NCBI RefSeq assembly: GCF_039539965.1
Contig: NZ_BAABED010000001.1
Location: 2,046,001 to 2,110,000, forward strand
DNA from: Arthrobacter methylotrophus
Lineage (GTDB): Bacteria > Actinomycetota > Actinomycetes > Actinomycetales > Micrococcaceae
DNA: 64,000 nt
Direction: 5' to 3'
Shown: piece by piece, positions 49,401-61,612 of the stretch
Layout: each line of letters begins with the position of its first letter
Numbering within the stretch: position 1 is the first letter of the stretch
Notes under the pieces: generated by a model
What the model saw: only the letters and a program-made list of their open reading frames with translations
Told to the model about the DNA's origin: nothing
Databases searched by the model: none
Program-made: the position numbers and the translations under genes

Positions 49401-51125
49401 CTACTGCGCCTCTCGTGTTGTGATGGGCAGGACGAGGCGGGATTGATGGGCGGCGTCGCGGTAGATCTTGTGGGTGACGGGCCGGCCCACCGGGAGGTGG
49501 AAGGCGTCCGGGGGGAGCAAGGCGTTGTGTTCATCTGCCAGCGGTTCGCCGTTGGAGAGTTCGGCCACGAGGCGGTGTCCGGGTTTGAAGGTGTTGGCAA
49601 AGGGGTAGAGCCGCAGCACGTACTCCTCGATCGTCCCCGGCTCCACTGGCACGGATGCTGTGTGTGGGTGGTATGGGTTGCCTTCTGTGGTCCGGTGGTC
49701 CAGTTCGCGGTGTGAGGCTTTGAGGTAGCCGGTGGTGATCAGCTGGCGTTTGCCGTTCGGGGCGGTGTCCCAGAGGCGAAGGATGAAGTTGGTGTCGCTC
49801 TGGTCGATTTCGGCGAAGATGTGTGCGGCGCCGGTGCCGATCATTTCGGTGTCGTTTTCGAACGGGGCGGTGCTCCACGAGAGGATTTCGACCTTGTCCG
49901 TTACTGTCAACGGCGCCTGGTAGAAGCCGTCCGGGGCGGCGTATTCGGCTCCCATTGGTTCAGGCTCTTCAGAGATCTTGTGCCGCGGGCGCAGGTACAG
50001 GGACTTGTATTCGATATCTTTCGGCGGCCATTGCTCCGCCGTCACTACCTCGCGGGAGCCCTCCACGAAGACGCTCACGGCCGGTTCGTCCATGACTCCG
50101 TTGTCGATGCCCTTGATCCAGTAGTCGTACCAGCGGAACATTTTGTCGTGTTCTTCGATGAAGGGGCGCGATTGCATGGGCGGGTAGGGGCCTATGGTGA
50201 GTTTTTTCGGGCCCTTCAGGGTGTTGTACAGCTCGATGGTGCCGTCAAGGGTCCACCCGCGGCCTTGGTCGAGTTGTAGCCAGACCGGAATGTCGATGTT
50301 TGGCGCGAGCGTGATGGGATTGCGCTCTTCGTACCAATCCCCGTCGAGTTCGTTCATCACGATGTCGAACCAGGCTTCGTGGTTTTTGGGGTAGTTCAGG
50401 ACATGGACCAGGTTTGGCCAGGCGGCGATGTCCGGATCCTCCAGGCGCATGGCGACAAGTTTTTTCAGCTCATCGGGGGAGTGCTTTTCAATCATCCGGG
50501 ATTTTACGTTGTCGGTGAACGCCCAGCCGGAGTCCCCGCCGCGGCCTTCGCGGGCGGCGCGGGGCATGAACCACATGATGCCGCCGTGGTAGGTGGTCTC
50601 GTAGAAGTCGTAGTGGCCGCCGGAAACGAAGATCGCCTTGAGGTGGGGAGGTCGCTCGGCGGCGGCCAGCACCTGCATGGAACCGAAGTAGGAGATGCCC
50701 ACCATGCCGACGTTGCCATCGCACCACGGCTGGTCGGCGACCCACTCGATGAAGTCGTAGGCGTCCTGGCCGAGGGAAACACCTCCGGCGTTGTAGTTAC
50801 CGATGTGCTCCCCGCCGGAGAAACCCGAGCCGCGGAGGTCGCCGATGACGTGGACGTAATCCTCCTTGACGATGCGGGCGATGTCGCCGGCCTCAATGCA
50901 GCCGTCCCACATCGGGCTGGGCCGCCGCTGCGGGGGAGTGGTGAGGGCGAGGGCCTGCAGCTCCTTGCCGTACGGGCTCAGGGCTACTAACGCCGGCCGC
51001 GGTTTGTCGTCGGGACCGTGGTATGCGTCCGCCGCAAGCTCTACTCCGTCCCGCATCGGAACCCGGAGGTCCTTGCGGACAGCAATTGTCTGCCCGCTTG
51101 CATTCAGCAACTGAAAGTCATCCAT
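49401..51125 (-). CDS. CocE/NonD family hydrolase
   Basis: A 574-residue serine hydrolase of the X-Pro dipeptidyl-peptidase/cocaine esterase family. The alpha/beta hydrolase core has VRVPMRDGVELAAD-like start (LRVPMRDGVELAADAY), the nucleophile in GMVGISYFGS and the oxyanion region; the C-terminal jelly-roll (LSWSTAPFENDTEMIGTGAA, NFILRLWDTAPNGKRQL) is complete. It probably cleaves an ester or amide in the pathway. Last gene of the minus-strand arm, and seven bases after the MBL-fold gene. Confidence 0.87.
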   Translation of the reverse strand: MDDFQLLNASGQTIAVRKDLRVPMRDGVELAADAYHGPDDKPRPALVALSPYGKELQALALTTPPQRRPSPMWDGCIEAGDIARIVKEDYVHVIGDLRGSGFSGGEHIGNYNAGGVSLGQDAYDFIEWVADQPWCDGNVGMVGISYFGSMQVLAAAERPPHLKAIFVSGGHYDFYETTYHGGIMWFMPRAAREGRGGDSGWAFTDNVKSRMIEKHSPDELKKLVAMRLEDPDIAAWPNLVHVLNYPKNHEAWFDIVMNELDGDWYEERNPITLAPNIDIPVWLQLDQGRGWTLDGTIELYNTLKGPKKLTIGPYPPMQSRPFIEEHDKMFRWYDYWIKGIDNGVMDEPAVSVFVEGSREVVTAEQWPPKDIEYKSLYLRPRHKISEEPEPMGAEYAAPDGFYQAPLTVTDKVEILSWSTAPFENDTEMIGTGAAHIFAEIDQSDTNFILRLWDTAPNGKRQLITTGYLKASHRELDHRTTEGNPYHPHTASVPVEPGTIEEYVLRLYPFANTFKPGHRLVAELSNGEPLADEHNALLPPDAFHLPVGRPVTHKIYRDAAHQSRLVLPITTREAQ

Positions 51126-51131
51126 GAGTAT

Positions 51132-52085
51132 TTACTCCTCATCTTCGGTCAAATGGTCCAACGTCGTGCGGTACCCGTGGAGGGTGGTGAAGAACGGGGC
51201 GGGTTCCAGTGTGGGATCCCCTTCGTAACCGAGGTCTTCGGCAACGCCTGCGAAGGGCGAATACGGCGAGTCCGTATCCTGCAGGCCGGAGGCCAAGCAA
51301 CCGCAGGCCGCATTCTTGACTCGGGCTTCGATCTCCAGGCTCCCTTGGAGCGCTTCCCCGGCCTGTCCGGCGTCGAGCTCTACGCCGTAGGGCGTTCCGT
51401 CTTCGCGGCGGTACGGGTGCCCCAGATACAAGTGGCGGGGACGGATTTCATCGCGCAAGTATTCAAGGCTTGAGCGGTAGCCGACCGGGTCCACGAACCC
51501 CGGGAAGCCGTTGGCCGCGCCGTGGACCTGAACCGCGTCCCCGACAAACACGTCATTCTGTCCGTCGAGGACGTAGGCGACCGACCCCGGAGTGTGGCCC
51601 GGAATCGAGTGGACCGAAACGGTGACGTCCCCGCCCAACGAGAGGGTCTCACCGCCCCGGACTAATAGCGTCGGTTCCATCTCGCCCGAGATAACGGCAT
51701 TCGTGGCCGCCGTCAGCTTCGCCTCGCCGTCGAGATCATGCAAGTACTGCGCCCGTCCGGAAAGGTATTCGTCCACATGGACCCGGCGCGAGCGCAAAAA
51801 TGGTGCGTCGGCCTCATGGATGACCACCTGGGCGCGGCGTCCGGTGAGTTCCCAGAGGGCGTATGCCCCGCCGATGTGGTCGATGTGTCCATGGGTCAGC
51901 AGGATCCAGCGGACGTCCTCGATCCGGCGGCCGATCGCCTCCAGTGCCGGCACCATGCCTTCCGCAGGCGAGGACGCGATCCCCGTGTCGACGATGGCCG
52001 GCTCCGGGGAGTCGATGAAGAAGCTGTAGAGGCCGAACCGGCCCCACGGCGAGACCAGGGGATGTACAGCAACCGGCTTCGTCAT
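51132..52085 (-). CDS. MBL-fold metallo-hydrolase
   Basis: A 317-residue metallo-beta-lactamase-fold enzyme. The zinc motif THGHIDHIGG is followed by HSIPGHTPGSVAYVLDG and VFVGDAVQ, with a final His in YLGHPY, so the di-metal site looks complete. Relatives include lactonases and thioesterases. It overlaps the next gene upstream by four bases, so it is part of the same transcript. Confidence 0.87.
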   Translation of the reverse strand: MTKPVAVHPLVSPWGRFGLYSFFIDSPEPAIVDTGIASSPAEGMVPALEAIGRRIEDVRWILLTHGHIDHIGGAYALWELTGRRAQVVIHEADAPFLRSRRVHVDEYLSGRAQYLHDLDGEAKLTAATNAVISGEMEPTLLVRGGETLSLGGDVTVSVHSIPGHTPGSVAYVLDGQNDVFVGDAVQVHGAANGFPGFVDPVGYRSSLEYLRDEIRPRHLYLGHPYRREDGTPYGVELDAGQAGEALQGSLEIEARVKNAACGCLASGLQDTDSPYSPFAGVAEDLGYEGDPTLEPAPFFTTLHGYRTTLDHLTEDEE

Positions 52086-53014
52086 TGACCGGGCCTCGCG
52101 TTCAGGAATTCACCTGTCACCTCGAATGCCCGGTAGAACTCCGGAATCCAAGAGAAGTTCTGGACAAAACCGTGGTTGGCGCCTGAGTAGCGGGTCACTT
52201 TTGTCTCGACGCCGGCTTCCGCCAAGCGCTGGCCGTAAAGTTCACCCTCGTCACGGAGCGGGTCGAACTCGGCCGTGATGATGAGTGCAGGTGGAAGGCC
52301 CGCAAGGTCTGCCCTTTTGATGGGGGATACGAGGGGATCCGCCGGGTCCGCGCCGCTCTCGACGTAGAAAGAGTTCCACGGCCTGAGGCCGATCGTCTCG
52401 AGCCCGTACCCCCGCGAGTTTTCCTGCAGCGACGCGTAACGCTCGACGTCGAAGTCCAGGTCCAGCGAGGGATAGAACATGATCTGATGGGTGATCCGGT
52501 TGAACCCGTCGTCGTGGGCTTTAGCAGCGACCGCCGCGACGAAATTGCCGCCCGAGCTGTCGCCGGCGATCGCGAGGTTCTTCCCGTCCCACTTCAGACT
52601 TTTGCCTTCCCCGGCAGCCCAGCGGACCACCCCGTAGCAGTCATCAAGCCCTGCCGGGAACGAGGCTTCGGGAGCCAAGCGGTAGCCCACCGAGATGACC
52701 TTGTGGCCGGTTTCCTTCGCCAGAGACCGTGCCACATGGTCGTGGGTGTCCAGGCTGCCCAGGAAGAACGCCCCGCCGTGGACGTACACCAGCAGACCAT
52801 AAGAGTCCGCCTCCACCGGCGTGTAGATCCGGATGGCGACCTCGCCGGTCGCCGTCGCGGCCGTCGCATCTTCGACGACTGCGAGCGGCAGGCGGTCCGC
52901 CGCGGGGGTAACCCGCTGCTCCTCGGCGGCCCGCATCGTGGCCGGATCCGGACGGGTGCCGTCAGCCGGCGGGATGTGGTCGAGGATCTCGGCGATCTGC
53001 GGATGGATAGGCAT
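52082..53014 (-). CDS. Alpha/beta hydrolase (hormone-sensitive lipase family)
   Basis: A 310-residue esterase. It shows HGGAFFLGS (oxyanion hole), GDSSGGNFVAAV (nucleophile Ser), DPLRDEGELYG (acid) and SGANHGF (His), the classic HSL/GDSAG layout. Likely acts on a short-chain ester in the pathway. It lies 15 bases downstream of the monooxygenase gene. Confidence 0.9.
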   Translation of the reverse strand: MPIHPQIAEILDHIPPADGTRPDPATMRAAEEQRVTPAADRLPLAVVEDATAATATGEVAIRIYTPVEADSYGLLVYVHGGAFFLGSLDTHDHVARSLAKETGHKVISVGYRLAPEASFPAGLDDCYGVVRWAAGEGKSLKWDGKNLAIAGDSSGGNFVAAVAAKAHDDGFNRITHQIMFYPSLDLDFDVERYASLQENSRGYGLETIGLRPWNSFYVESGADPADPLVSPIKRADLAGLPPALIITAEFDPLRDEGELYGQRLAEAGVETKVTRYSGANHGFVQNFSWIPEFYRAFEVTGEFLNARPGQ

Positions 53015-53029
53015 CTTGCGACCTCCGTC

Positions 53030-54139
53030 TTACTGCTTGGCCGGGAACGCGGATTCCACGGCGTCGGCGTGCCAGCCCTGGCGCGACACACGCTGCAGCT
53101 CGTCCGTCAGCGGCTTGCGGGTGGCCTCGTAGATCGCCAGTGCGTCCTTGACGGAGTCGCCCTGCAGGAGTGCGTCGGCGAACCCGCCGGCGTCCAGGAT
53201 CGCCGAGTTGGCGCCCTGGCCCTGGTGGTGGAGCATCGCGTGGGCAGCGTCGCCGAGCAGCGCAACGGAGTCGGTGTGCCATGAGTCCAGGGGATCGATG
53301 TCGAACACCGAACGGCTCGTCACCTGGCTCAAGTCGAGCTCCCGGGCGACCTGGATGATCCGCTCGTCGAATCCTTCGAGGATCTTCTCCAAGTACTCAT
53401 GGGTGATTTCCGGCGCCCACGAGGCGTCGTCAGACGGGGCCGTGATGTCGTAGGAGAGCTGCCCGCGGTGGCGCAGCGGCAGATTGTACGCGATCGTGCC
53501 GTTCTCGCCCATGTAGAAGCGCGGGTTGTCGTCGGTGACGAGGCCGTGGGCGTCTTCGATGGAAATGACCGCGCGGTAGGCGTGCTCGCCGGAGAACACC
53601 GGTTCCTTCTGCGAGAACAGCTGGTAGCGCACCGTCGAACGGATGCCGTCGGCGCCGATGACGAGGTCGGCCGTGATGACCTCGCCGTTTTCGAAGGTCA
53701 GGGTCGCGTGGTCGCCGTTGTCCTCGATGGTCTCCAGCTTGTAGCCAAGGTGCACCATGCCTTCGGGGAGCACGCTCAGCAGGGCGTCGATGAAGTCCCC
53801 GCGGTGGATCATGCGGTTGTGGTTGACCTTCTCGTAGGCGTGCAGGAAGGGCCACTCCTCGTTGGCGAGGACGTGCTTACCGTCCGCACTGAGGATCTCA
53901 AGGTGGTCGCTGGGCGAGCTCACCGCGGCAATCGCGTCGAAGATGCCCCATTGGCGGAACAGTTCGACGGTCGGCGGGCGCAGGCCGATGCCAGCACCAA
54001 CCTGGCCCAACGCGGGCGCCTGCTCATAGACGTGGACGTTCTCCGCGCCGATATTCTGCAGAGCCTTGGCAACAGCAGCGCCGCCGTAGCCGCCGCCGAT
54101 GATGGCGATGTTGAGGTTCTTGATGTCTTGAGCCTTCAT
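53030..54139 (-). CDS. FAD-dependent monooxygenase (salicylate hydroxylase-like)
   Basis: A 369-residue group A flavoprotein. FAD motif IAIIGGGYGGAAVAKAL, DG motif VIGADGIRSTV and GD motif ALLGDAAHAMLHHQGQGAN are present. Family members add a hydroxyl to aromatic rings using NAD(P)H. Placed between the two phosphotriesterase-like genes and the hydrolases, it suggests that an aromatic or unsaturated ring compound is processed. The actual substrate is unknown. Confidence 0.87.
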   Translation of the reverse strand: MKAQDIKNLNIAIIGGGYGGAAVAKALQNIGAENVHVYEQAPALGQVGAGIGLRPPTVELFRQWGIFDAIAAVSSPSDHLEILSADGKHVLANEEWPFLHAYEKVNHNRMIHRGDFIDALLSVLPEGMVHLGYKLETIEDNGDHATLTFENGEVITADLVIGADGIRSTVRYQLFSQKEPVFSGEHAYRAVISIEDAHGLVTDDNPRFYMGENGTIAYNLPLRHRGQLSYDITAPSDDASWAPEITHEYLEKILEGFDERIIQVARELDLSQVTSRSVFDIDPLDSWHTDSVALLGDAAHAMLHHQGQGANSAILDAGGFADALLQGDSVKDALAIYEATRKPLTDELQRVSRQGWHADAVESAFPAKQ

Positions 54140-54218: not shown

Positions 54219-55172
54219 TCAGGCGTCCAGCGATAGGAAGTCGGCCGGGTTGGTTTCGAGGAGGAGTTTGAGGGTGGCGTCGTCGATGCCGGCCTCGCGC
54301 ATATCCGGGATCATGTCCTCGAAGATGTAGTTGATGGTGTGGCCCTTGACGCCTGGCCAGCCCAGGGGGCTGCAGTTGGCGTCGGCGGAGACGAGGAGTT
54401 TGTCTGCGTAGCCTTTGTTGACGAGGTTCACGAAGTGCTGCATGCGTTCGGCGCGCTTGCGGCCCCAGAAGGGCGGATCGGGAAGTTCGAGGTCGTAGCC
54501 GAAGGTGTCGAAGCCGATCCGTCCGCCTTGTTTGTAGATCCAGTCGTGCGGGGTGATCGGGGCGTTGAGTCCGTCGTCGGCGTGGCCGAAGAGCACGCGG
54601 TCCAGGGAGAGGCCTTCTTCGTTGAAGATGGCCACGGCTGGTTCGGGGTCGATGGCCAGGTGGGTCAGGATCGGTGCACCCGTGAGGACGGCGGCGCGGG
54701 CCGCGGCCCGGTAGATGCGTTTGTCCAGCTCCGTCATTCGTCCGCCGCGGCTTACGCCGACCTTGATGACGCCGGCCTTGGCGCCGGTGTTTCCGATGCC
54801 GACGGTGATCTCGTGGATGAACACTTTCGTGAGGTAGTCCACGGTGGCGCGGGAGAAGTGCGGTAGTGCGGTGTCGCCGCCGACGAACCCGGTGCAGGCC
54901 ACGATGTGCACGCCTGTTTTTCGTGACAGAGACTTGTAGTAGTCGACGTCGCGGCCGTTGCAGATACCCGTGGCGTCCACGAAGGTGCCGCCGCCGTATT
55001 CGCGGAACTTCCGCAGCTTCGGCACGGTTTCTTCATAGGCTTGTTCCGGAGTCTTCCACCATTTGCTGTCCAGTTCGGATCCGGGCATGCCGTAGCCGAT
55101 GTGTTCGTGGACCGCCACGATTTCCAGTTCTTCGGCCGGAATGGTTCCCAGCACTGTGTTGACCTTGGTCAT
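54219..55172 (-). CDS. Phosphotriesterase-family metal-dependent hydrolase
   Basis: A 317-residue amidohydrolase-superfamily protein. The full set of PTE-type metal ligands can be placed: His22 and His24 (VAVHEHIGYG), Lys137 to be carboxylated (AGVIKVGVS), His171 (ILTHLAID), His197 (LFGHADD) and Asp264 (LVSADANCS). Many natural members are lactonases, so cleavage of a lactone or ester is a fair guess. It is about 30-40% similar by eye to the product of the neighbouring gene at 55223, which lacks these ligands. The two genes are 50 bases apart. Confidence 0.88.
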   Translation of the reverse strand: MTKVNTVLGTIPAEELEIVAVHEHIGYGMPGSELDSKWWKTPEQAYEETVPKLRKFREYGGGTFVDATGICNGRDVDYYKSLSRKTGVHIVACTGFVGGDTALPHFSRATVDYLTKVFIHEITVGIGNTGAKAGVIKVGVSRGGRMTELDKRIYRAAARAAVLTGAPILTHLAIDPEPAVAIFNEEGLSLDRVLFGHADDGLNAPITPHDWIYKQGGRIGFDTFGYDLELPDPPFWGRKRAERMQHFVNLVNKGYADKLLVSADANCSPLGWPGVKGHTINYIFEDMIPDMREAGIDDATLKLLLETNPADFLSLDA

Positions 55173-55222: not shown

Positions 55223-56233
55223 TTAACGCACGGTGAGTAGCTTGCGCGGGTTCTCCGCGAGGATGCGCTGGGCGTCTTCCTCGCTCAAGCCGTGTGCCTT
55301 GAGGTGCGGTACGAACGTGGCCAGGACGTGGCTGTAGGGCAGGTTGTATTCCGGAACGCCCTTGGCGACTCCGATCGAGTTTCCCGAAAGGATGATTTTG
55401 TCGGCGTGACCGGCCTGCACGAGTTCGAGTACCAGTTCGGTGCGTTCGTGGTCGGTGAGGTAGTCCGGATGGTCATTCAAGCCCACGTGGTCGATGCCGA
55501 CGAATGCTCCGCGGCGAGCCACTTCGAGGGCGGAGCCGGCGGCGTCCTTGCGGTCCAGCTCGCCCACGAGTACCCGGTCGGCCCCGACCTGCTCGTCCAG
55601 GACGATGTCCAGGTCGTGCAGGGCGTCGGCGCCGAAGCGGATGGAGACGGGGACACCGGTGTTCTTGGCGGTGCGGGCGGAGCCGCGGAACAGGCTTTCC
55701 TCGGTGGGGGTCATCCCGGCGCGGTCGGCGATGGTGGTCACGATGCCGGCGGCGGCGCGGCGTTCGAGCCGGGGGACCACCATTCCCTCGGTGACTTCCT
55801 TGCCGAAGAGATCGCTGAACTTGTCGGCCGGCCACGGGGTGGGTGGATTGGTCTGTGGCGTAAGGAAGTATCCGCCGAGTTCTTCCTCCGGGCCCAGGCC
55901 TGTGGAAGCGATGATGTGGACGCCGGTGGAGCGGGAAAGTGCCTCGTAGAGTTTGAGGTCGCGGCCGTGGAACATTCCGGTGCTGTCAACGATCGTTTGC
56001 CCGCCGTGCTCGCGGAAGTCCGTGAGTTTCGCGGCCAGCGCCTGGAAGATCTCTGCCCGGTCCATGGAGATGTCGGGAGCGTACTGGGCGCCCGGGAGCA
56101 CTGACAACAAGGCCTCGTGGACCGCGACAATGCCCAATTCCGTCGCGGGGACGGGACCCAGGACCGTATTGACGGTCCGCCCATCGGCGGTATGGAACGC
56201 GTCGCCGGTATCGACGGGTATGGTGTGGCTCAC
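55223..56233 (-). CDS. Phosphotriesterase-like pseudoenzyme
   Basis: A 336-residue homologue of the preceding PTE-like protein, easily aligned through VNTVLGPVPATELGIVAVHE, STGVHIIASTG and DKIILSGN. Against it, the metal ligands read His39 kept, then Ala41 for His, Thr166 for Lys, Arg199 for His, Glu225 for His and Asn285 for Asp. With five of six ligands gone it cannot bind the binuclear centre in the usual way. The frame is intact and long, so it seems kept for another role, perhaps as a partner subunit of the active paralogue. First gene of the minus-strand arm, just behind an operator. Confidence 0.85.
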   Translation of the reverse strand: MSHTIPVDTGDAFHTADGRTVNTVLGPVPATELGIVAVHEALLSVLPGAQYAPDISMDRAEIFQALAAKLTDFREHGGQTIVDSTGMFHGRDLKLYEALSRSTGVHIIASTGLGPEEELGGYFLTPQTNPPTPWPADKFSDLFGKEVTEGMVVPRLERRAAAGIVTTIADRAGMTPTEESLFRGSARTAKNTGVPVSIRFGADALHDLDIVLDEQVGADRVLVGELDRKDAAGSALEVARRGAFVGIDHVGLNDHPDYLTDHERTELVLELVQAGHADKIILSGNSIGVAKGVPEYNLPYSHVLATFVPHLKAHGLSEEDAQRILAENPRKLLTVR

Positions 56234-56330: not shown

Positions 56331-56347
56331 CTTTACATCGTGTCAAG
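56331..56347. promoter_or_regulatory. TetR operator candidate A
   Basis: CTTTACATCGTGTCAAG, an imperfect palindrome. On the minus strand it contains TTGACA (56341-56346), a likely -35 for the operon starting at 56233, so binding would block that promoter. Nearly identical to sites B and C. Confidence 0.65.
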
Positions 56348-56413: not shown

Positions 56414-56430
56414 CTTGACATCATGTAAAG
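56414..56430. promoter_or_regulatory. TetR operator candidate B with plus-strand promoter
   Basis: CTTGACATCATGTAAAG; its reverse complement differs from site A at two positions. It contains TTGACA (56415-56420), which with CAGAAT (56439-56444, 18-base spacer) forms a likely promoter for the MFS/P450 operon. Confidence 0.65.
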
Positions 56431-56548: not shown

Positions 56549-58276
56549 ATGAGTCAGACCATTTCCGTAGCGAGCCGCGGCTCGGTACGGGCCACTTTTG
56601 TGGCCGCCTACAGTGCGGTCACCCTCGCACAGATCACCAACGCATTGCCAGGGGCCCTCAGCGGCACCTTTGCCGTGGAATTCCACACCTCGGGTGCCGG
56701 ACTGACCTGGATCGCGGGCATGTTCCTGATGGGCATTGTTGTATTCGAGCTCAGCTGGGGACTCCTGGGCGACATGTTCGGACGCAAGAAGCTGCTCTAC
56801 GTCGGCGCTGCCGTCAGCATCGTCGGCTCCGTTATGGCCGCGATGGCGCCCACCACAGACATGATGATCGTGGCGCAGGCCATCGGCGGCATCGGGGCCG
56901 GCATCCTCTTTCCCATATCGCTTTCCATGATCGCGGCGATCACTCCTGACCACCGTGCCCGGGCAAAGGTCATCGCCACCTGGGCCGGGTTCCTCTCGCT
57001 GGGCGCGGTGATTTCCCCGATGCTCGCCGGGTTCACGGCGCAGTTCTTCACCGTGCCGGGTGGTGCACCGGGCGCCCCGAACGCCTTCAGTGGCTGGCGC
57101 GCGGCCTATTTGGTTGCGGCCGCTGTCGCCGTGCTCGTGCTTATCATCGCGGTCAAGGCAAAGGATTCCGCAGCGGCCGAGGGACGCAAGATGGACCTGC
57201 CCGGCCAGGTCACTCTCGCACTCGGCCTCATCGCCGTCCTTTACGCCACGGTGACGGCGGTTGACGCCGGCTTCGGCAGCGCCCAGGTGATCGCAAGCTA
57301 CATCGCTGGCGGAATCCTGCTGCTCGCTTTCGTCGTCATCGAATCACGCACCGCGCAGCCACTGATCCACCTGTCGCTGTTCAAGAACAGCTCCTACTCG
57401 ATTACCGGCATTGTGGCAGTCACCGGCATGTTCGCATTCCTCGCGATCTGCTTCAGCACGAGCGTCGCCGTCAGCGGCCTGGCGCTGGCCGAGACCTGGA
57501 AGATCGGAGTACTGTTCGTCTTCATCCAAGGCCCGGCATTCGCCTTCATTCCGGTTGTCGGATGGCTCATCCACCACGTTGCGCCACGCTGGGTGCTCAC
57601 GGCCGGTTTCGCTCTCATGGCCGTCTCCGGTTTCTGGCTCTCGACGTTCGCCCTAGGCACTCCAGAGACCTTCGGTGGCACCCCGTGGACGACGTTCATT
57701 CCGCCGCTGCTGCTACTGGGTATCGGCTTCGCCCTTACGGTTGGCTCAGTGACCGCCGTGGCCATCAACACCGTCCCCGTCCAGCAAATCGGCATGGCAT
57801 CCGCCACGACGAATCTCTTGCGCGACCTTGGCTTCGCGCTCGGCCCCGTCATCGGCTCGGCCATCGCCTTCGGCATTGGAGCCACGGTGTTCGCGGGTCC
57901 CCTTGCCGGGATCCTCGGGGTGGCAGGTCTGCCCGCAGATGCGGTGGCCGGGCTGGTACACGTGCCACCGTTAGGCTTCCTCTCAGGCTGGGACGGCGTT
58001 GTCGCCCAATTCTCCGGCCAAGCAGCGGCAAGCGGCGCGCCCGCCCAAGCGGTCGACGGCATGGTCAAGGCACTCGTCGCCGCCAAGCCACATATCCAGG
58101 GCGTCGCCGGGACCTCCCTGGGCCAGGGTTTCCAGACTGTCTACCTCTCCGCGGGCATCGCTGCGACCCTCTCCGCCATTCTCACTCTTTTCATCTCCGC
58201 ACGGTCCTCGGCACCTACCGCGGACGCCATTGCGGAGACCACCGAAGCAAACGAGGAGGCCGCCGTCATTGATTGA
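56549..58276 (+). CDS. MFS transporter, DHA2 (14-helix) type
   Basis: A 575-residue membrane protein with about 14 helices. Motif A reads LLGDMFGRKKLLYVG and a second copy-like glycine-rich helix is GIGAGILFPISLSMIAAI. It starts the plus-strand arm of the catabolic cluster, so it may take up the substrate or expel a toxic intermediate. ATG at 56549 follows AAGGGAG; an in-frame start at 56432 lies in the promoter region and is rejected. Confidence 0.87.
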   Translation: MSQTISVASRGSVRATFVAAYSAVTLAQITNALPGALSGTFAVEFHTSGAGLTWIAGMFLMGIVVFELSWGLLGDMFGRKKLLYVGAAVSIVGSVMAAMAPTTDMMIVAQAIGGIGAGILFPISLSMIAAITPDHRARAKVIATWAGFLSLGAVISPMLAGFTAQFFTVPGGAPGAPNAFSGWRAAYLVAAAVAVLVLIIAVKAKDSAAAEGRKMDLPGQVTLALGLIAVLYATVTAVDAGFGSAQVIASYIAGGILLLAFVVIESRTAQPLIHLSLFKNSSYSITGIVAVTGMFAFLAICFSTSVAVSGLALAETWKIGVLFVFIQGPAFAFIPVVGWLIHHVAPRWVLTAGFALMAVSGFWLSTFALGTPETFGGTPWTTFIPPLLLLGIGFALTVGSVTAVAINTVPVQQIGMASATTNLLRDLGFALGPVIGSAIAFGIGATVFAGPLAGILGVAGLPADAVAGLVHVPPLGFLSGWDGVVAQFSGQAAASGAPAQAVDGMVKALVAAKPHIQGVAGTSLGQGFQTVYLSAGIAATLSAILTLFISARSSAPTADAIAETTEANEEAAVID

Positions 58277-58315
58277 CGGATGGCTTCACCCCCTACTATC
58301 CGCAAGGAGAACACC

Positions 58316-59488
58316 GTGACTGCACCCATCGAGTCAAACATCGACATCTGGGATGACGACGTCCTCGTCGACCCCTATCCCACCTATGCCGCGCTCCGCG
58401 AGCAGGCTTCAGTGGTCCACCTTCCGAAGAACGATCTGTACGTCTTGACGCGCTACGACGTCATCCGCGACGCCCTTGGCGACCCCGAAGCCTTCTCCTC
58501 CTCCAGCATCGGATTCAACCCCATGGTCAACGAGGCGCTACAGGGCACCTCCCTGGCCTCCGACCCGCCCATTCACACGCAGCTCCGCGCCACCTTGTCC
58601 CAGAACCTCACCCCCCGAGCCCTCCGTGGCCTCAAAGTCGTCATCGACGAAAAGGCCGACAAGCTCGTCGCGGAACTGGCCGCGAGCGGCAGCTTCGAGG
58701 CCATCGACGCCTTGGCCCGTGCCTTCCCGATCGAAATCGTCGCCGACCTCATTGGCTTCAGCGGTCACGTCAAGGCCAACATGCTGCGCTGGGGCCAGGC
58801 TGCGATGCAGGTCATCGGCCCGCTGAACCAGCGCACCCAGGAGAGCTTCCCGATCGCCGGCGAGCTTTACGGCTGGTGCTCCTCGGTCACCGCGGACGAC
58901 CTCACGCCCGGCTCCATTGGGCGCGGCATCTTTGACGCCGAGACCCGCGGCGACATTCCCGAGGGCTCCGCGGGCCACATCATCCACCAGTACCTCGGAG
59001 CCGGCGTCGACACGACCATCGCCTCTATCGGCAACATCGTTGCGCTGTTTGGCCACCACCCCGATCAGTTCGAGCTGGTCCGAGAGAACCCGGAACTCGT
59101 TCCCGCCGCGTTCGCTGAAGTGCTCCGCTACTGGGCGCCGGTCCATATCTGGGGCCGGAAGGCAACCCGCGATGTGGAAATCGATGGAGTCACGATTCCT
59201 GCAGGTGCCCAGGTGGGCGTCCTGTTCGGCGCCGGCAACCGGGATCCGCGCCACTACGAGAATCCCGACACTTTCGACGTGAAACGCAACCCCGTGGACC
59301 ACCTCTCGTTCGGATATGGGCCGCATGGCTGCGCCGGGCAGGGCCTCGCGAAGCTCGAGGCGCACGCGATCATCGAAGCGCTTGCCCGAAGGGTAAAGAC
59401 CCTGGTCCTCGCCGACGAGGCCCGCGAGCCCAGCAATATAACGCGGAGCTTCGAGGTGCTCCAGGTTGAAAAGGTGGTGGCAGCATGA
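58316..59488 (+). CDS. Cytochrome P450
   Basis: A 390-residue soluble bacterial P450. I-helix oxygen motif GAGVDTTIA, ExxR in FAEVLRYW and the heme-binding loop FGYGPHGCAGQ (Cys ligand) are all present. It resembles the CYP199-like group that acts on aromatic acids, but I would not assign a family firmly. Followed by its own ferredoxin and reductase, it forms a complete class I electron chain. The start GTG at 58316 is six bases after AAGGAG; an in-frame ATG at 58280 has none. Confidence 0.93.
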   Translation: MTAPIESNIDIWDDDVLVDPYPTYAALREQASVVHLPKNDLYVLTRYDVIRDALGDPEAFSSSSIGFNPMVNEALQGTSLASDPPIHTQLRATLSQNLTPRALRGLKVVIDEKADKLVAELAASGSFEAIDALARAFPIEIVADLIGFSGHVKANMLRWGQAAMQVIGPLNQRTQESFPIAGELYGWCSSVTADDLTPGSIGRGIFDAETRGDIPEGSAGHIIHQYLGAGVDTTIASIGNIVALFGHHPDQFELVRENPELVPAAFAEVLRYWAPVHIWGRKATRDVEIDGVTIPAGAQVGVLFGAGNRDPRHYENPDTFDVKRNPVDHLSFGYGPHGCAGQGLAKLEAHAIIEALARRVKTLVLADEAREPSNITRSFEVLQVEKVVAA

Positions 59489-59679
59489 GGATCGAACTGG
59501 ACCGTCCCCGCTGCGAGGGTCACGGCCTGTGCGAGGAGGCAGCGCCCGCGCTGATGCACCTGGATGACGACGGCGAATTGGTCATCGATGTGCCGGAAGT
59601 GGATGGGTCCGATCTTGACGCCGCGAAGGCTGCGGTCAGGGTTTGCCCGGTCGCCGCGCTCCGATTGGCCGCGGCATGA
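59485..59679 (+). CDS. Ferredoxin, P450 partner
   Basis: A 64-residue [3Fe-4S]-type ferredoxin. Cysteines appear in RCEGHGLCEEAAP and VRVCPVAAL; the His in CEGHGLC replaces the second Cys, as in many actinobacterial P450 ferredoxins. It overlaps the P450 stop by four bases, and its own stop overlaps the reductase start. Confidence 0.93.
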   Translation: MRIELDRPRCEGHGLCEEAAPALMHLDDDGELVIDVPEVDGSDLDAAKAAVRVCPVAALRLAAA

Positions 59680-60890
59680 CCATGCGCAGGATTGTGGTGG
59701 TCGGCAACGGAATTGCTGGTCTCACGGCGTGCGATTCGCTCCGCTCGGCAGGTTTCGACGGTGAGTTGACGGTGGTGGGCGCGGAACGCCACCATCCGTA
59801 TAGCCGCCCGGCCCTGTCCAAGGCGCTGCTGCACGGCGTCGATGGGGTGGGTGTCGACGGGAACAGCGAGGGCGCGCTGCAGGCGCACGAACTTCCCGAG
59901 CCGGGCCACGAAGCAAGGGAGTTGCTCGGCGTCAGCGCCACGGGTCTGGACGTCGACGCCCGGCTGGTTCATCTGGACGGAGGCGATGACCTGCCGTATG
60001 ACGGCCTTGTTATCGCCTCCGGTTCCAGGGCGAGGCGCCTCACGGCGGGTGTGCAAGGGAATAGCTCCTCACACGAGCTCACCTTGCGCACCATCGAGGA
60101 TGCCATCCTGCTCAAGGAACGCCTCGCATCGCGGCCCTCAGTCGTCGTGGTCGGTGGCGGACCACTCGGAATGGAAGTCGCCTCAGGCTGCCTGCACGTT
60201 GGCTGCGACGTCACGCTCGTCTCCGACGCCAAACCACTCTCGCGCCAGCTTGGCGACCATCTGTCGGACATGTTCACCTCCGCCGCCATCCGGCGCGGAC
60301 TGCGAGTGGTTGCCGGCGGGCAGGCCCGCTTGCTGGACGACGACGCCGGGACACGGGTTGTCCTGGCCGACGGCAGCGAGCTCCGGGCCGATCTCGTGGT
60401 CACCGCAATTGGCGACGAACCGAATGTCGGCTGGTTGGCCGGCTCGCAGCTACTGACCGACGGGTCGCTGCGCGTCGACGCGCGTGGACGGCTGCGGCCG
60501 GACATCGTGGCTGCCGGCGATGTGGCGTTCTTCCCCACCCGCTACGGCGTTCAACGGGTTCCCCTGTGGACGAGCGCCATCGACCAGGCCAAGAACGCTG
60601 CGCTCGGACTGCTCCAAGGCGAAGCTGCGCCCGAGTTTACCTTCCAGCCGTACTTCTGGACCGAGGGTTTCGGCCTCTCGCTCAAGGCTGTCGGGTTCAC
60701 GCCGGTGGTCGGGACGCCGGACTATTGCGAGCCGGGCGATGGCGGAGACTCGGTGCTCCTGCGCTGGCAGAACGACGACGGATTCGGCACCGCCGCCGCG
60801 GTCAATTACCGGATTCCGATCCCCAAACTGCGCCGCTTGGCTGATGTCGGTCCCGGGGCGCTACGTCGAGAGGCGCCCCTAAAGCTCTGA
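59676..60890 (+). CDS. Ferredoxin reductase (FAD, NAD(P)H-dependent)
   Basis: A 404-residue oxidoreductase that passes electrons from NAD(P)H to the neighbouring ferredoxin. FAD motif VVVGNGIAGLTACDSL, NAD motif VVVGGGPLGMEVASG and the second FAD segment DIVAAGDVAFFP are typical of the rubredoxin/putidaredoxin reductase family. The start ATG at 59676 overlaps the ferredoxin stop (ATGA), fixing the start; a longer frame from 59643 is rejected. Confidence 0.92.
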   Translation: MTMRRIVVVGNGIAGLTACDSLRSAGFDGELTVVGAERHHPYSRPALSKALLHGVDGVGVDGNSEGALQAHELPEPGHEARELLGVSATGLDVDARLVHLDGGDDLPYDGLVIASGSRARRLTAGVQGNSSSHELTLRTIEDAILLKERLASRPSVVVVGGGPLGMEVASGCLHVGCDVTLVSDAKPLSRQLGDHLSDMFTSAAIRRGLRVVAGGQARLLDDDAGTRVVLADGSELRADLVVTAIGDEPNVGWLAGSQLLTDGSLRVDARGRLRPDIVAAGDVAFFPTRYGVQRVPLWTSAIDQAKNAALGLLQGEAAPEFTFQPYFWTEGFGLSLKAVGFTPVVGTPDYCEPGDGGDSVLLRWQNDDGFGTAAAVNYRIPIPKLRRLADVGPGALRREAPLKL

Positions 60891-60911: not shown

Positions 60912-60928
60912 CTTGACAGCGTGTCAGG
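60912..60928. promoter_or_regulatory. TetR operator candidate C
   Basis: CTTGACAGCGTGTCAGG, with the arms TGACA/TGTCA, 70 bases before the TetR gene. It shares the ACAnCGTGTCA core with site A and TTGACA with site B, fitting autoregulation. Confidence 0.6.
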
Positions 60929-60997: not shown

Positions 60998-61612
60998 ATG
61001 TCCTCCCTGCGAGAAGCCCAGAAGCAGCTGACGCGCGACACCATCGTGGAACGTGCGCTTGAGCTCTTCACGAAGAAGGGTTACGGCGCGACGACCATCG
61101 ATGAGATCGCCGCGGCGGCCGGTACCACCCGGGTGACCTTCTATGCCTACTACCCTTCACGCAGCGACTTGATGAAGGACTTCATGGCGCGCGTCAATGC
61201 CGTCCTCGACCGTGCGGACGGCCCTGATCGTATGTCGACCGCCCCCGATCTCGTCGAGGTGGTGCGCGTCGGCGAGCTCGAGGGCATCCTTGCGTGGCTC
61301 GAGTCGCGCGCCGCGCTATGGCCGGTCTTCCGTCCGTACCTTGACGTGCTTGACGAAGCCGCCGCAGTCGATCGTGAGGTTCGGGACTTGGTGGAAGGGT
61401 GGCATGAGGAGGTCATTTCCGACATCGTCCGCGGCCTACAACTCGCCGGACGTTTCTCTGAGGAGACGCACCGCATCCGCGGAACACTCGCCTTCACGCA
61501 GCTCGACTTTGTCGCCACACTGTGGACACGACGCAAGCTCGAACCAAATCGCGACCATGCCCTCGAGGTGCTCGCCGACAGTTGGTATCACCTTCTCTGC
61601 GACGAAGGCTAG
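60998..61612 (+). CDS. TetR/AcrR family transcriptional regulator
   Basis: A 204-residue repressor. N-terminal helix-turn-helix: TIVERALELFTKKGYGATTI then DEIAAAAGTTRVTFYAYYPS. The C-terminal ligand-binding helices are variable. It is the last gene of the plus-strand arm, and three matching palindromes stand before it and over both divergent promoters. Most simply it represses the whole cluster until a pathway compound binds. Confidence 0.92.
   Translation: MSSLREAQKQLTRDTIVERALELFTKKGYGATTIDEIAAAAGTTRVTFYAYYPSRSDLMKDFMARVNAVLDRADGPDRMSTAPDLVEVVRVGELEGILAWLESRAALWPVFRPYLDVLDEAAAVDREVRDLVEGWHEEVISDIVRGLQLAGRFSEETHRIRGTLAFTQLDFVATLWTRRKLEPNRDHALEVLADSWYHLLCDEG

What the first reader, a model, noticed from the sequence alone, without database searches (positions are those of the whole stretch)
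55223..56233. A metal-site-stripped phosphotriesterase homologue next to its intact paralogue
By eye alignment of the two neighbours, the protein at 54219 has all six PTE-type ligands (His22, His24, Lys137, His171, His197, Asp264). The one at 55223 keeps only the first His; the rest are Ala41, Thr166, Arg199, Glu225 and Asn285. The frame is intact, it is the first gene behind a regulated promoter, and the fold regions are conserved, so it looks like a maintained pseudoenzyme and not a dying gene. A heteromeric partner, an allosteric or binding role, or a metal-free activity are all possible.
Basis: partly seen in the sequence, partly recalled or inferred. Interest (0 to 1): 0.8.

Follow-up and report, generated by a model that had tools for sequence, protein, structure and literature searches.

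The report
Metal-stripped phosphotriesterase partner protein
A relative of a metal enzyme that has lost most of its metal-binding residues is kept beside its intact sister gene in the same gene cluster of many soil bacteria, and its strongest conservation now lies in a surface loop, which suggests a working partner and not a dying gene.

The parts
55223..56233 (-). PTEb: PTE-fold protein without the metal ligand set (336 aa, GTG start)
55823..55900 (-). loop 3 of PTEb (residues 112-137), the richest in PTEb-specific conserved residues
55958..55984 (-). loop 2 of PTEb (residues 84-92)
54219..55172 (-). PTEa: paralogue with intact metal ligands (317 aa), 50 nt downstream of PTEb
53030..54139 (-). 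FAD monooxygenase (nearest solved: 6-hydroxynicotinate 3-monooxygenase, tropone 2-monooxygenase)
52082..53014 (-). alpha/beta hydrolase (Abhydrolase_3, esterase-like)
51132..52085 (-). MBL-fold hydrolase
49401..51125 (-). CocE/NonD-type hydrolase
56414..56430 (.). operator-like site CTTGACATCATGTAAAG
56331..56347 (.). second operator-like site, 2 mismatches
60912..60928 (.). weaker operator-like site before the TetR gene, 4 mismatches
56549..58276 (+). MFS transporter, divergent from PTEb (ATG start chosen; the ORF list starts at TTG 56432)
58280..59488 (+). cytochrome P450, nearest solved relative PbdA (CYP199)
59485..59679 (+). small ferredoxin-like protein (64 aa), overlapping the P450 stop; type judged by eye from its Cys pattern
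59676..60890 (+). ferredoxin reductase-like protein (the ORF list's TTG start at 59643 is probably too early)
60998..61612 (+). TetR-family regulator

Best explanation
PTEb is a maintained partner of PTEa that very probably binds no metal. Shown by sequence: a PTE gene duplicated; one copy (PTEa) kept the six metal ligands; the other (PTEb) lost five of them early and the sixth in some lineages, and carries a longer, nearly invariant loop 3. The two genes stay paired, PTEb first, at the head of an operon with an FMO, two alpha/beta hydrolases and an MBL hydrolase. Inferred: PTE proteins are dimers, so the duplicated homodimer became a PTEa/PTEb heteromer (or PTEb otherwise docks on PTEa) in which PTEb's loop face, loop 3 above all, stabilises, gates or completes PTEa's active site. 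PTEa does the metal-dependent hydrolysis (lactone, ester or amide; substrate unknown) of a product made by the P450 and FMO.
For: Sister clades: splits PTEa 100, PTEb 100, PTEa+PTEb against 32 others 98 UFBoot. PTEa downstream of PTEb in 80 of 80 named loci; both in 17 genomes of 99 relatives, own included; 29 of 29 with PTEa among 295 same-family genomes, one with PTEb in two frames; 2 of 2 among 396 phylum genomes. Caballeronia: same order, PTEb and PTEa annotated with a 4-base overlap; by eye all six ligands are gone from PTEb and present in PTEa. Old ligand positions drift: 0 of 6 reach 95% in 41 sequences filtered at 80% identity, while 92 of 336 positions do. 42 of these 92 differ from PTEa, and 17 of the 42 lie in the 25 residues of loop 3, 6 in loop 1, 5 in the turn 149-163. 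Loop 3 residues 117-128 have low confidence in the monomer model although nearly invariant, as a loop ordered by a partner would. Omega 0.079. PTE and PLL proteins are dimers (passages of PMC10619419 and PMC4323659).
Against: No complex was tested. The other cassette genes co-occur nearly as strictly (FMO 79, MBL 78, CocE 77, Abhydrolase_3 77 of 80), so pairing alone does not show contact. Mutual information between PTEb and PTEa gave no excess of outliers over nine control pairs of the cassette (z>5: 4 of 14,523; controls 2-9 per pair); its single best pair (z 7.43) is only just above the best control (7.23). No natural fusion was seen (limited length range). PTEb loop 8, which matches part of the canonical PTE homodimer interface (301-313), is not conserved (6 of 14), and loop 1 as a whole is ordinary (113 of 296 windows are as conserved). 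Low model confidence in loop 3 may only reflect a shallow alignment (63 sequences). PTEb has about 2.5 times the omega of PTEa. In 80 actinobacterial loci plus the window His39 and Arg199 are invariant (81 of 81), which fits a ligand pocket there.
Confidence: 0.5

Rival explanations
1. PTEb works on its own, as a metal-free enzyme or small-molecule binding protein, with loop 3 as a lid over a remodelled pocket; it needs no contact with PTEa.
For: Loops 2 and 3 follow strands 2 and 3, so they sit on the catalytic face and would line the pocket mouth. Arg199 and His39 are invariant in 81 of 81 actinobacterial sequences. Every cassette gene is kept, so PTEb may be one more step of the pathway.
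Against: In the 26 more distant sequences Arg199 becomes Gln or Lys in 14 and His39 something else in 16, so these groups are not common to the family. The 17 PTEb-specific invariant residues of loop 3 are mostly Pro, Gly, Tyr/Trp and Thr/Gln; only Glu116 is charged.
Confidence: 0.28
2. PTEb is a regulator, folding helper or metal-loading helper of PTEa or of another cassette enzyme, acting transiently.
For: Upstream of PTEa in the same operon in 80 of 80 loci; conserved patches both in loop 3 and at the turn between helix 3 and strand 4 (PRxER), which could mean more than one contact surface.
Against: No direct evidence either way; no comparison with known metallochaperones was made.
Confidence: 0.13
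3. PTEb binds metal through other residues and is an ordinary hydrolase with a shifted site.
For: Invariant acidic residues such as E40, D83, E116, E157, D227 and D248 exist.
Against: E40, D83, D227 and D248 have the same residue in PTEa, so they look like general fold residues. No His or Cys reaches 95% in the 41 sequences.
Confidence: 0.06
4. PTEb is a decaying copy.
For: One of 29 same-family genomes (G590) carries PTEb in two frames; assembly error not excluded.
Against: Omega 0.079; full length in 80 of 80 named loci, where PTEa is broken or misread in 3; motifs kept at about 50% identity.
Confidence: 0.03

Closest known systems
Phosphotriesterase / PTE-like lactonase family (PF02126; OpdA, PTE, SsoPox)
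   Different: Five of the six metal ligands are gone in this protein, all six in Caballeronia; loop 3 is longer than in PTEa and nearly invariant.
Pseudo-dihydroorotase chain of Pseudomonas aspartate transcarbamoylase (PMC7053772; passages incl. part of the abstract seen)
   Same: An inactive homologue of a metal-dependent hydrolase that is kept beside an active enzyme and is needed for that enzyme's activity and assembly. (That DHOase and PTE both belong to the amidohydrolase superfamily is recalled.)
   Different: There the partner is an unrelated transcarbamoylase; here the candidate partner is the active paralogue, and no complex has been shown. The passage states the loss of zinc ligands for the homologous fungal domain.
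PbdA / CYP199A P450 systems (PMC11530827; passages incl. parts of the abstract seen)
   Same: The divergent P450 of the cassette has PbdA as its nearest solved relative by sequence (261 bits).
   Different: The carboxylate triad Arg84/Ser87/Ser237 is not kept on my reading of the alignment: Arg84 falls in a gap and the serines align with G and Q. Here the P450 sits with a 64-aa ferredoxin and a separate reductase.

Membership tests
PF02126 phosphotriesterase family (by descent and fold) | Profile match over the curated cut-off | tested here: met
   144.3 bits against 22.4
PF02126 phosphotriesterase family (by descent and fold) | PTE (beta/alpha)8 fold | tested here: met
Functional PTE / lactonase | Binuclear metal site: HxH, carbamylated Lys, two His, Asp | tested here: not met
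   PTEb reads HATREN; 0 of 6 positions conserved at 95% in 41 sequences
Functional PTE / lactonase | Metal-dependent hydrolase activity | not testable with these tools
   no assay possible
PTE dimers | Canonical dimer interface, PTE 60-79 and 301-313 | tested here: inconclusive
   at 95%: loop 1 11 of 20, loop 8 6 of 14, neither unusual for the protein; interface from a passage of PMC10619419; mapping by my alignment
Pseudoenzyme kept under selection | Ligand loss fixed across species, purifying selection | tested here: met
Pseudoenzyme kept under selection | No catalytic activity | not testable with these tools
   inferred from the lost ligands only
Pseudo-dihydroorotase type obligate partner | Physical complex with an active partner, required for its activity | not testable with these tools
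   pair not folded or assayed together; covariation test inconclusive
CYP199A (cassette P450) | Carboxylate-binding Arg84/Ser87/Ser237 of PbdA | tested here: not met
   alignment read by eye against residue numbers of PMC11530827

The most novel reading that the evidence does not exclude
A paralogous heteromer of the phosphotriesterase family, none of which I found in print: a subunit that has shed its metal centre donates a nearly invariant 25-residue loop that completes or gates the active site of its metal-bearing sister. The pair opens a conserved P450/FMO/multi-hydrolase operon, seen in many Actinobacteria and in Caballeronia and not found described in my searches.
Probability: 0.35. Interest if true: 0.75.

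Novelty: new variant of a known kind. Interest (0 to 1): 0.6.

Why it matters
PTE enzymes are a model for enzyme evolution and for lactone and organophosphate hydrolysis. A natural pair in which one barrel lost its metal ligands, let those positions drift and put its constraint into one loop gives a clean, testable case of how a homodimeric enzyme may split into a catalytic and a non-catalytic chain. It also flags a conserved operon of many soil bacteria whose proteins carry only general names such as 'phosphotriesterase' or 'hydrolase' in the records seen. Naming PTEb a phosphotriesterase is probably wrong.

Tried and rejected
Decaying gene: rejected. Recent loss with ligand-keeping relatives: none seen among 126 PTEb sequences. 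Metal-free catalysis by His39/Arg199: weakened, because both drift in the wider family.

Covariation PTEb-PTEa against nine control pairs (77 genomes after a 95% filter, of 91 holding all five genes): no excess of outliers; the best single pair is just above the best control; mean MI is higher for the pair (0.163 against 0.125-0.135), which shared ancestry can explain.

Natural fusion of the two genes: none seen among the 56 proteins found (only proteins of about 360-1143 aa, words from the first 500 residues, and only the 7995 candidates sharing most words scored).

Substrate from the P450: nearest to PbdA, but the carboxylate triad is not kept, so methoxybenzoate is not supported. Literature for the pair or the cassette: searches listed nothing that I recognised as describing it; one search found no paper; for the others I saw the listed titles and abstract starts only (one listed paper, PMC11530827, was then read in passages for the P450), and only open-licence PMC papers are searched.

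The 26 more distant sequences came from the length-limited search plus the Caballeronia protein, so they favour longer proteins. Dropped from the 50 new rows: three PTEa-like rows (P0243, P0247, P0248), the partial P0269, five short-coverage or chimeric rows (P0270-P0273, P0276), and 16 distant PTE rows (P0274, P0275, P0277-P0290; 15 read HHKHHD and P0290 reads HHMHHE). The other six rows were already. The plasmid search gave 13 records; only Caballeronia (59%) is PTEb-like, the other 12 (26-30%) were not examined further.

Of 133 relatives found in named genomes only the 80 returned were examined. Cassette presence counts hits over half the query at any identity, so some P450, MFS, TetR or reductase hits may be paralogues. 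The 'no internal stop' line is true by construction and is not used; frame length was checked instead. Omega comes from a model with kappa at 1 and many saturated pairs; pairwise YN00 medians were 0.045 (154 pairs) for PTEb and 0.013 (171 pairs) for PTEa. The rooted printout gave 49 for clade A; the tree file read unrooted gives 100, and I trust the latter because rerooting shifts labels. Both AF2 models rest on shallow alignments (63 and 47 sequences). The pair could not be folded together with the tools at hand.

Full report
What is there. Two adjacent minus-strand genes encode PF02126 proteins: PTEb (55223-56233, 336 aa) and, 50 bases downstream, PTEa (54219-55172, 317 aa). They are 31-34% identical. 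A third PF02126 gene lies elsewhere in the genome and keeps all ligands.

The loss is old and kept. In the 120 listed nearest homologues (81-100% identical, the window's own protein included) Arg stands at 199 in 120 and Asn at 285 in 118, and none has the ligand set. In 80 named loci of many actinobacterial genera plus the window: His39 81, Ala41 81, Arg199 81, position 166 A56/T25, position 225 G56/D21/other 4, position 285 N67/S7/G7. PTEa keeps each ligand in 80 or 81 of 81, one row being truncated. PTEb runs full length in 80 of 80 loci; PTEa is broken or misread in 3 of 80 (L075, L097, L125). A tree of 68 sequences puts PTEa and PTEb together (98) against 32 other PTE homologues, each clade at 100. 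So a metal-binding ancestor duplicated and PTEb lost the site afterwards. A codon model gives omega 0.079 for PTEb and 0.032 for PTEa over 28 Arthrobacter-group sequences.

The pair and the operon. PTEa lies downstream of PTEb on the same strand in 80 of 80 named loci, median gap 49 bases, range 3-239. FMO is present in 79, MBL 78, CocE 77 and Abhydrolase_3 77 of 80; within the fetched flanks and at any identity P450 in 55, ferredoxin reductase 53, TetR 61, MFS 46. These 80 were picked by PTEb, so genomes picked otherwise matter more. Among 295 same-family genomes searched with PTEa, 29 have it (74% or more, own included) and all 29 have PTEb beside it, one of them in two frames (20 of the 29 regions were fetched, the other nine judged from coordinates). 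Among 99 relatives 17 have both; the three next best matches whose loci were compared are at most 31% identical to PTEa. Among 396 phylum genomes 2 have both. A Caballeronia insecticola plasmid holds TetR, P450, ferredoxin, reductase, PTEb, PTEa, FMO, hydrolase, MBL, CocE in one direction, PTEb and PTEa annotated with a 4-base overlap; by eye all six ligands are gone from that PTEb and present in that PTEa.

Where the constraint lies. Twenty-six further PTEb proteins, about 50-71% identical to the window's, have S/N/C/Q at 39 in 16, Q/K at 199 in 14, and S14/N6/G4/D1/H1 at 285. One is named Paraburkholderia tropica and one is the Caballeronia protein. In 41 sequences filtered at 80% identity none of the six old ligand positions is 95% conserved, while 92 of 336 positions are. 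Forty-two of these differ from PTEa: 17 in loop 3 (112-136), 6 in loop 1, 5 in the turn 149-163, the rest scattered. In the 81-sequence set loops 2 and 3 rank among the most conserved stretches of the protein (9 of 9 and 22 of 26 at 95%; only 8 of 307 and 6 of 290 windows are as low in entropy), while loop 1 (113 of 296) and loop 8 (203 of 302) do not. In short, the old metal site drifts and part of the loop face does not.

Mechanism. I favour a partner role for PTEa, most simply a heteromer, because the family is dimeric (passages of PMC10619419 and PMC4323659) and the pair arose by duplication. Shown by sequence: duplication, loss, pairing, selection, loop conservation. Inferred: absence of metal, physical contact, the role of loop 3, and the reaction. 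Against it: other cassette genes are kept about as strictly, covariation shows no clear signal above controls, no fusion was seen, and the stretches matching the canonical interface are not specially conserved. An independent binding protein or lid-covered enzyme remains the main rival.

Setting. CTTGACATCATGTAAAG and a near-copy lie between the divergent MFS and PTEb genes, a weaker one before the TetR gene; 58 of 80 loci have a match upstream of PTEb, against 7 of 400 random stretches. That the TetR protein binds them is inferred. The P450 is nearest to PbdA but lacks its carboxylate triad. The FMO is nearest to 6-hydroxynicotinate 3-monooxygenase. The substrate is unknown.

Known relatives. 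Pseudo-dihydroorotase of Pseudomonas is the nearest working analogue: an inactive homologue of a hydrolase required by an active partner (PMC7053772, passages). For a metal-stripped PTE partner or this cassette, searches of the open-licence library listed nothing that I recognised.

Noticed in passing
53030-54139 and L054-L078: The FMO gene is only 53-64% identical (mostly 61-64%) between this strain and 25 Arthrobacter-group loci, while PTEa beside it is 93-97% identical; L053 (100%), L079 (95%), L080 (89%) and L113 (88%) share the window's type. This looks like in-place replacement of the FMO gene.
   Followed up: no
L142 6206-7158: In genome G590 PTEb lies in two frames while PTEa and the rest of the cassette look intact; sequencing error or recent loss cannot be told apart.
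   Followed up: partly
59485-59679: A 64-aa ferredoxin-like gene between the P450 and its reductase is missed by a 90-aa ORF cut-off; it overlaps the P450 stop.
   Followed up: yes
56331, 56414, 60912: Operator-like sites in the divergent promoter region and before the TetR gene; present upstream of PTEb in 58 of 80 loci.
   Followed up: yes
55223-56233 residues 80-119: Weak second Pfam match to His_biosynth (PF00977, 24.2 bits, cut-off 23.6); also precomputed for two distant homologues, P0250 and P0261.
   Followed up: no
51132-52085 and L053-L132: The MBL gene is on the other strand in 12 of the 76 loci where it could be compared with Abhydrolase_3, and lies further downstream in some, while PTEb, PTEa and FMO keep strand and order in the loci where all were found.
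   Followed up: no
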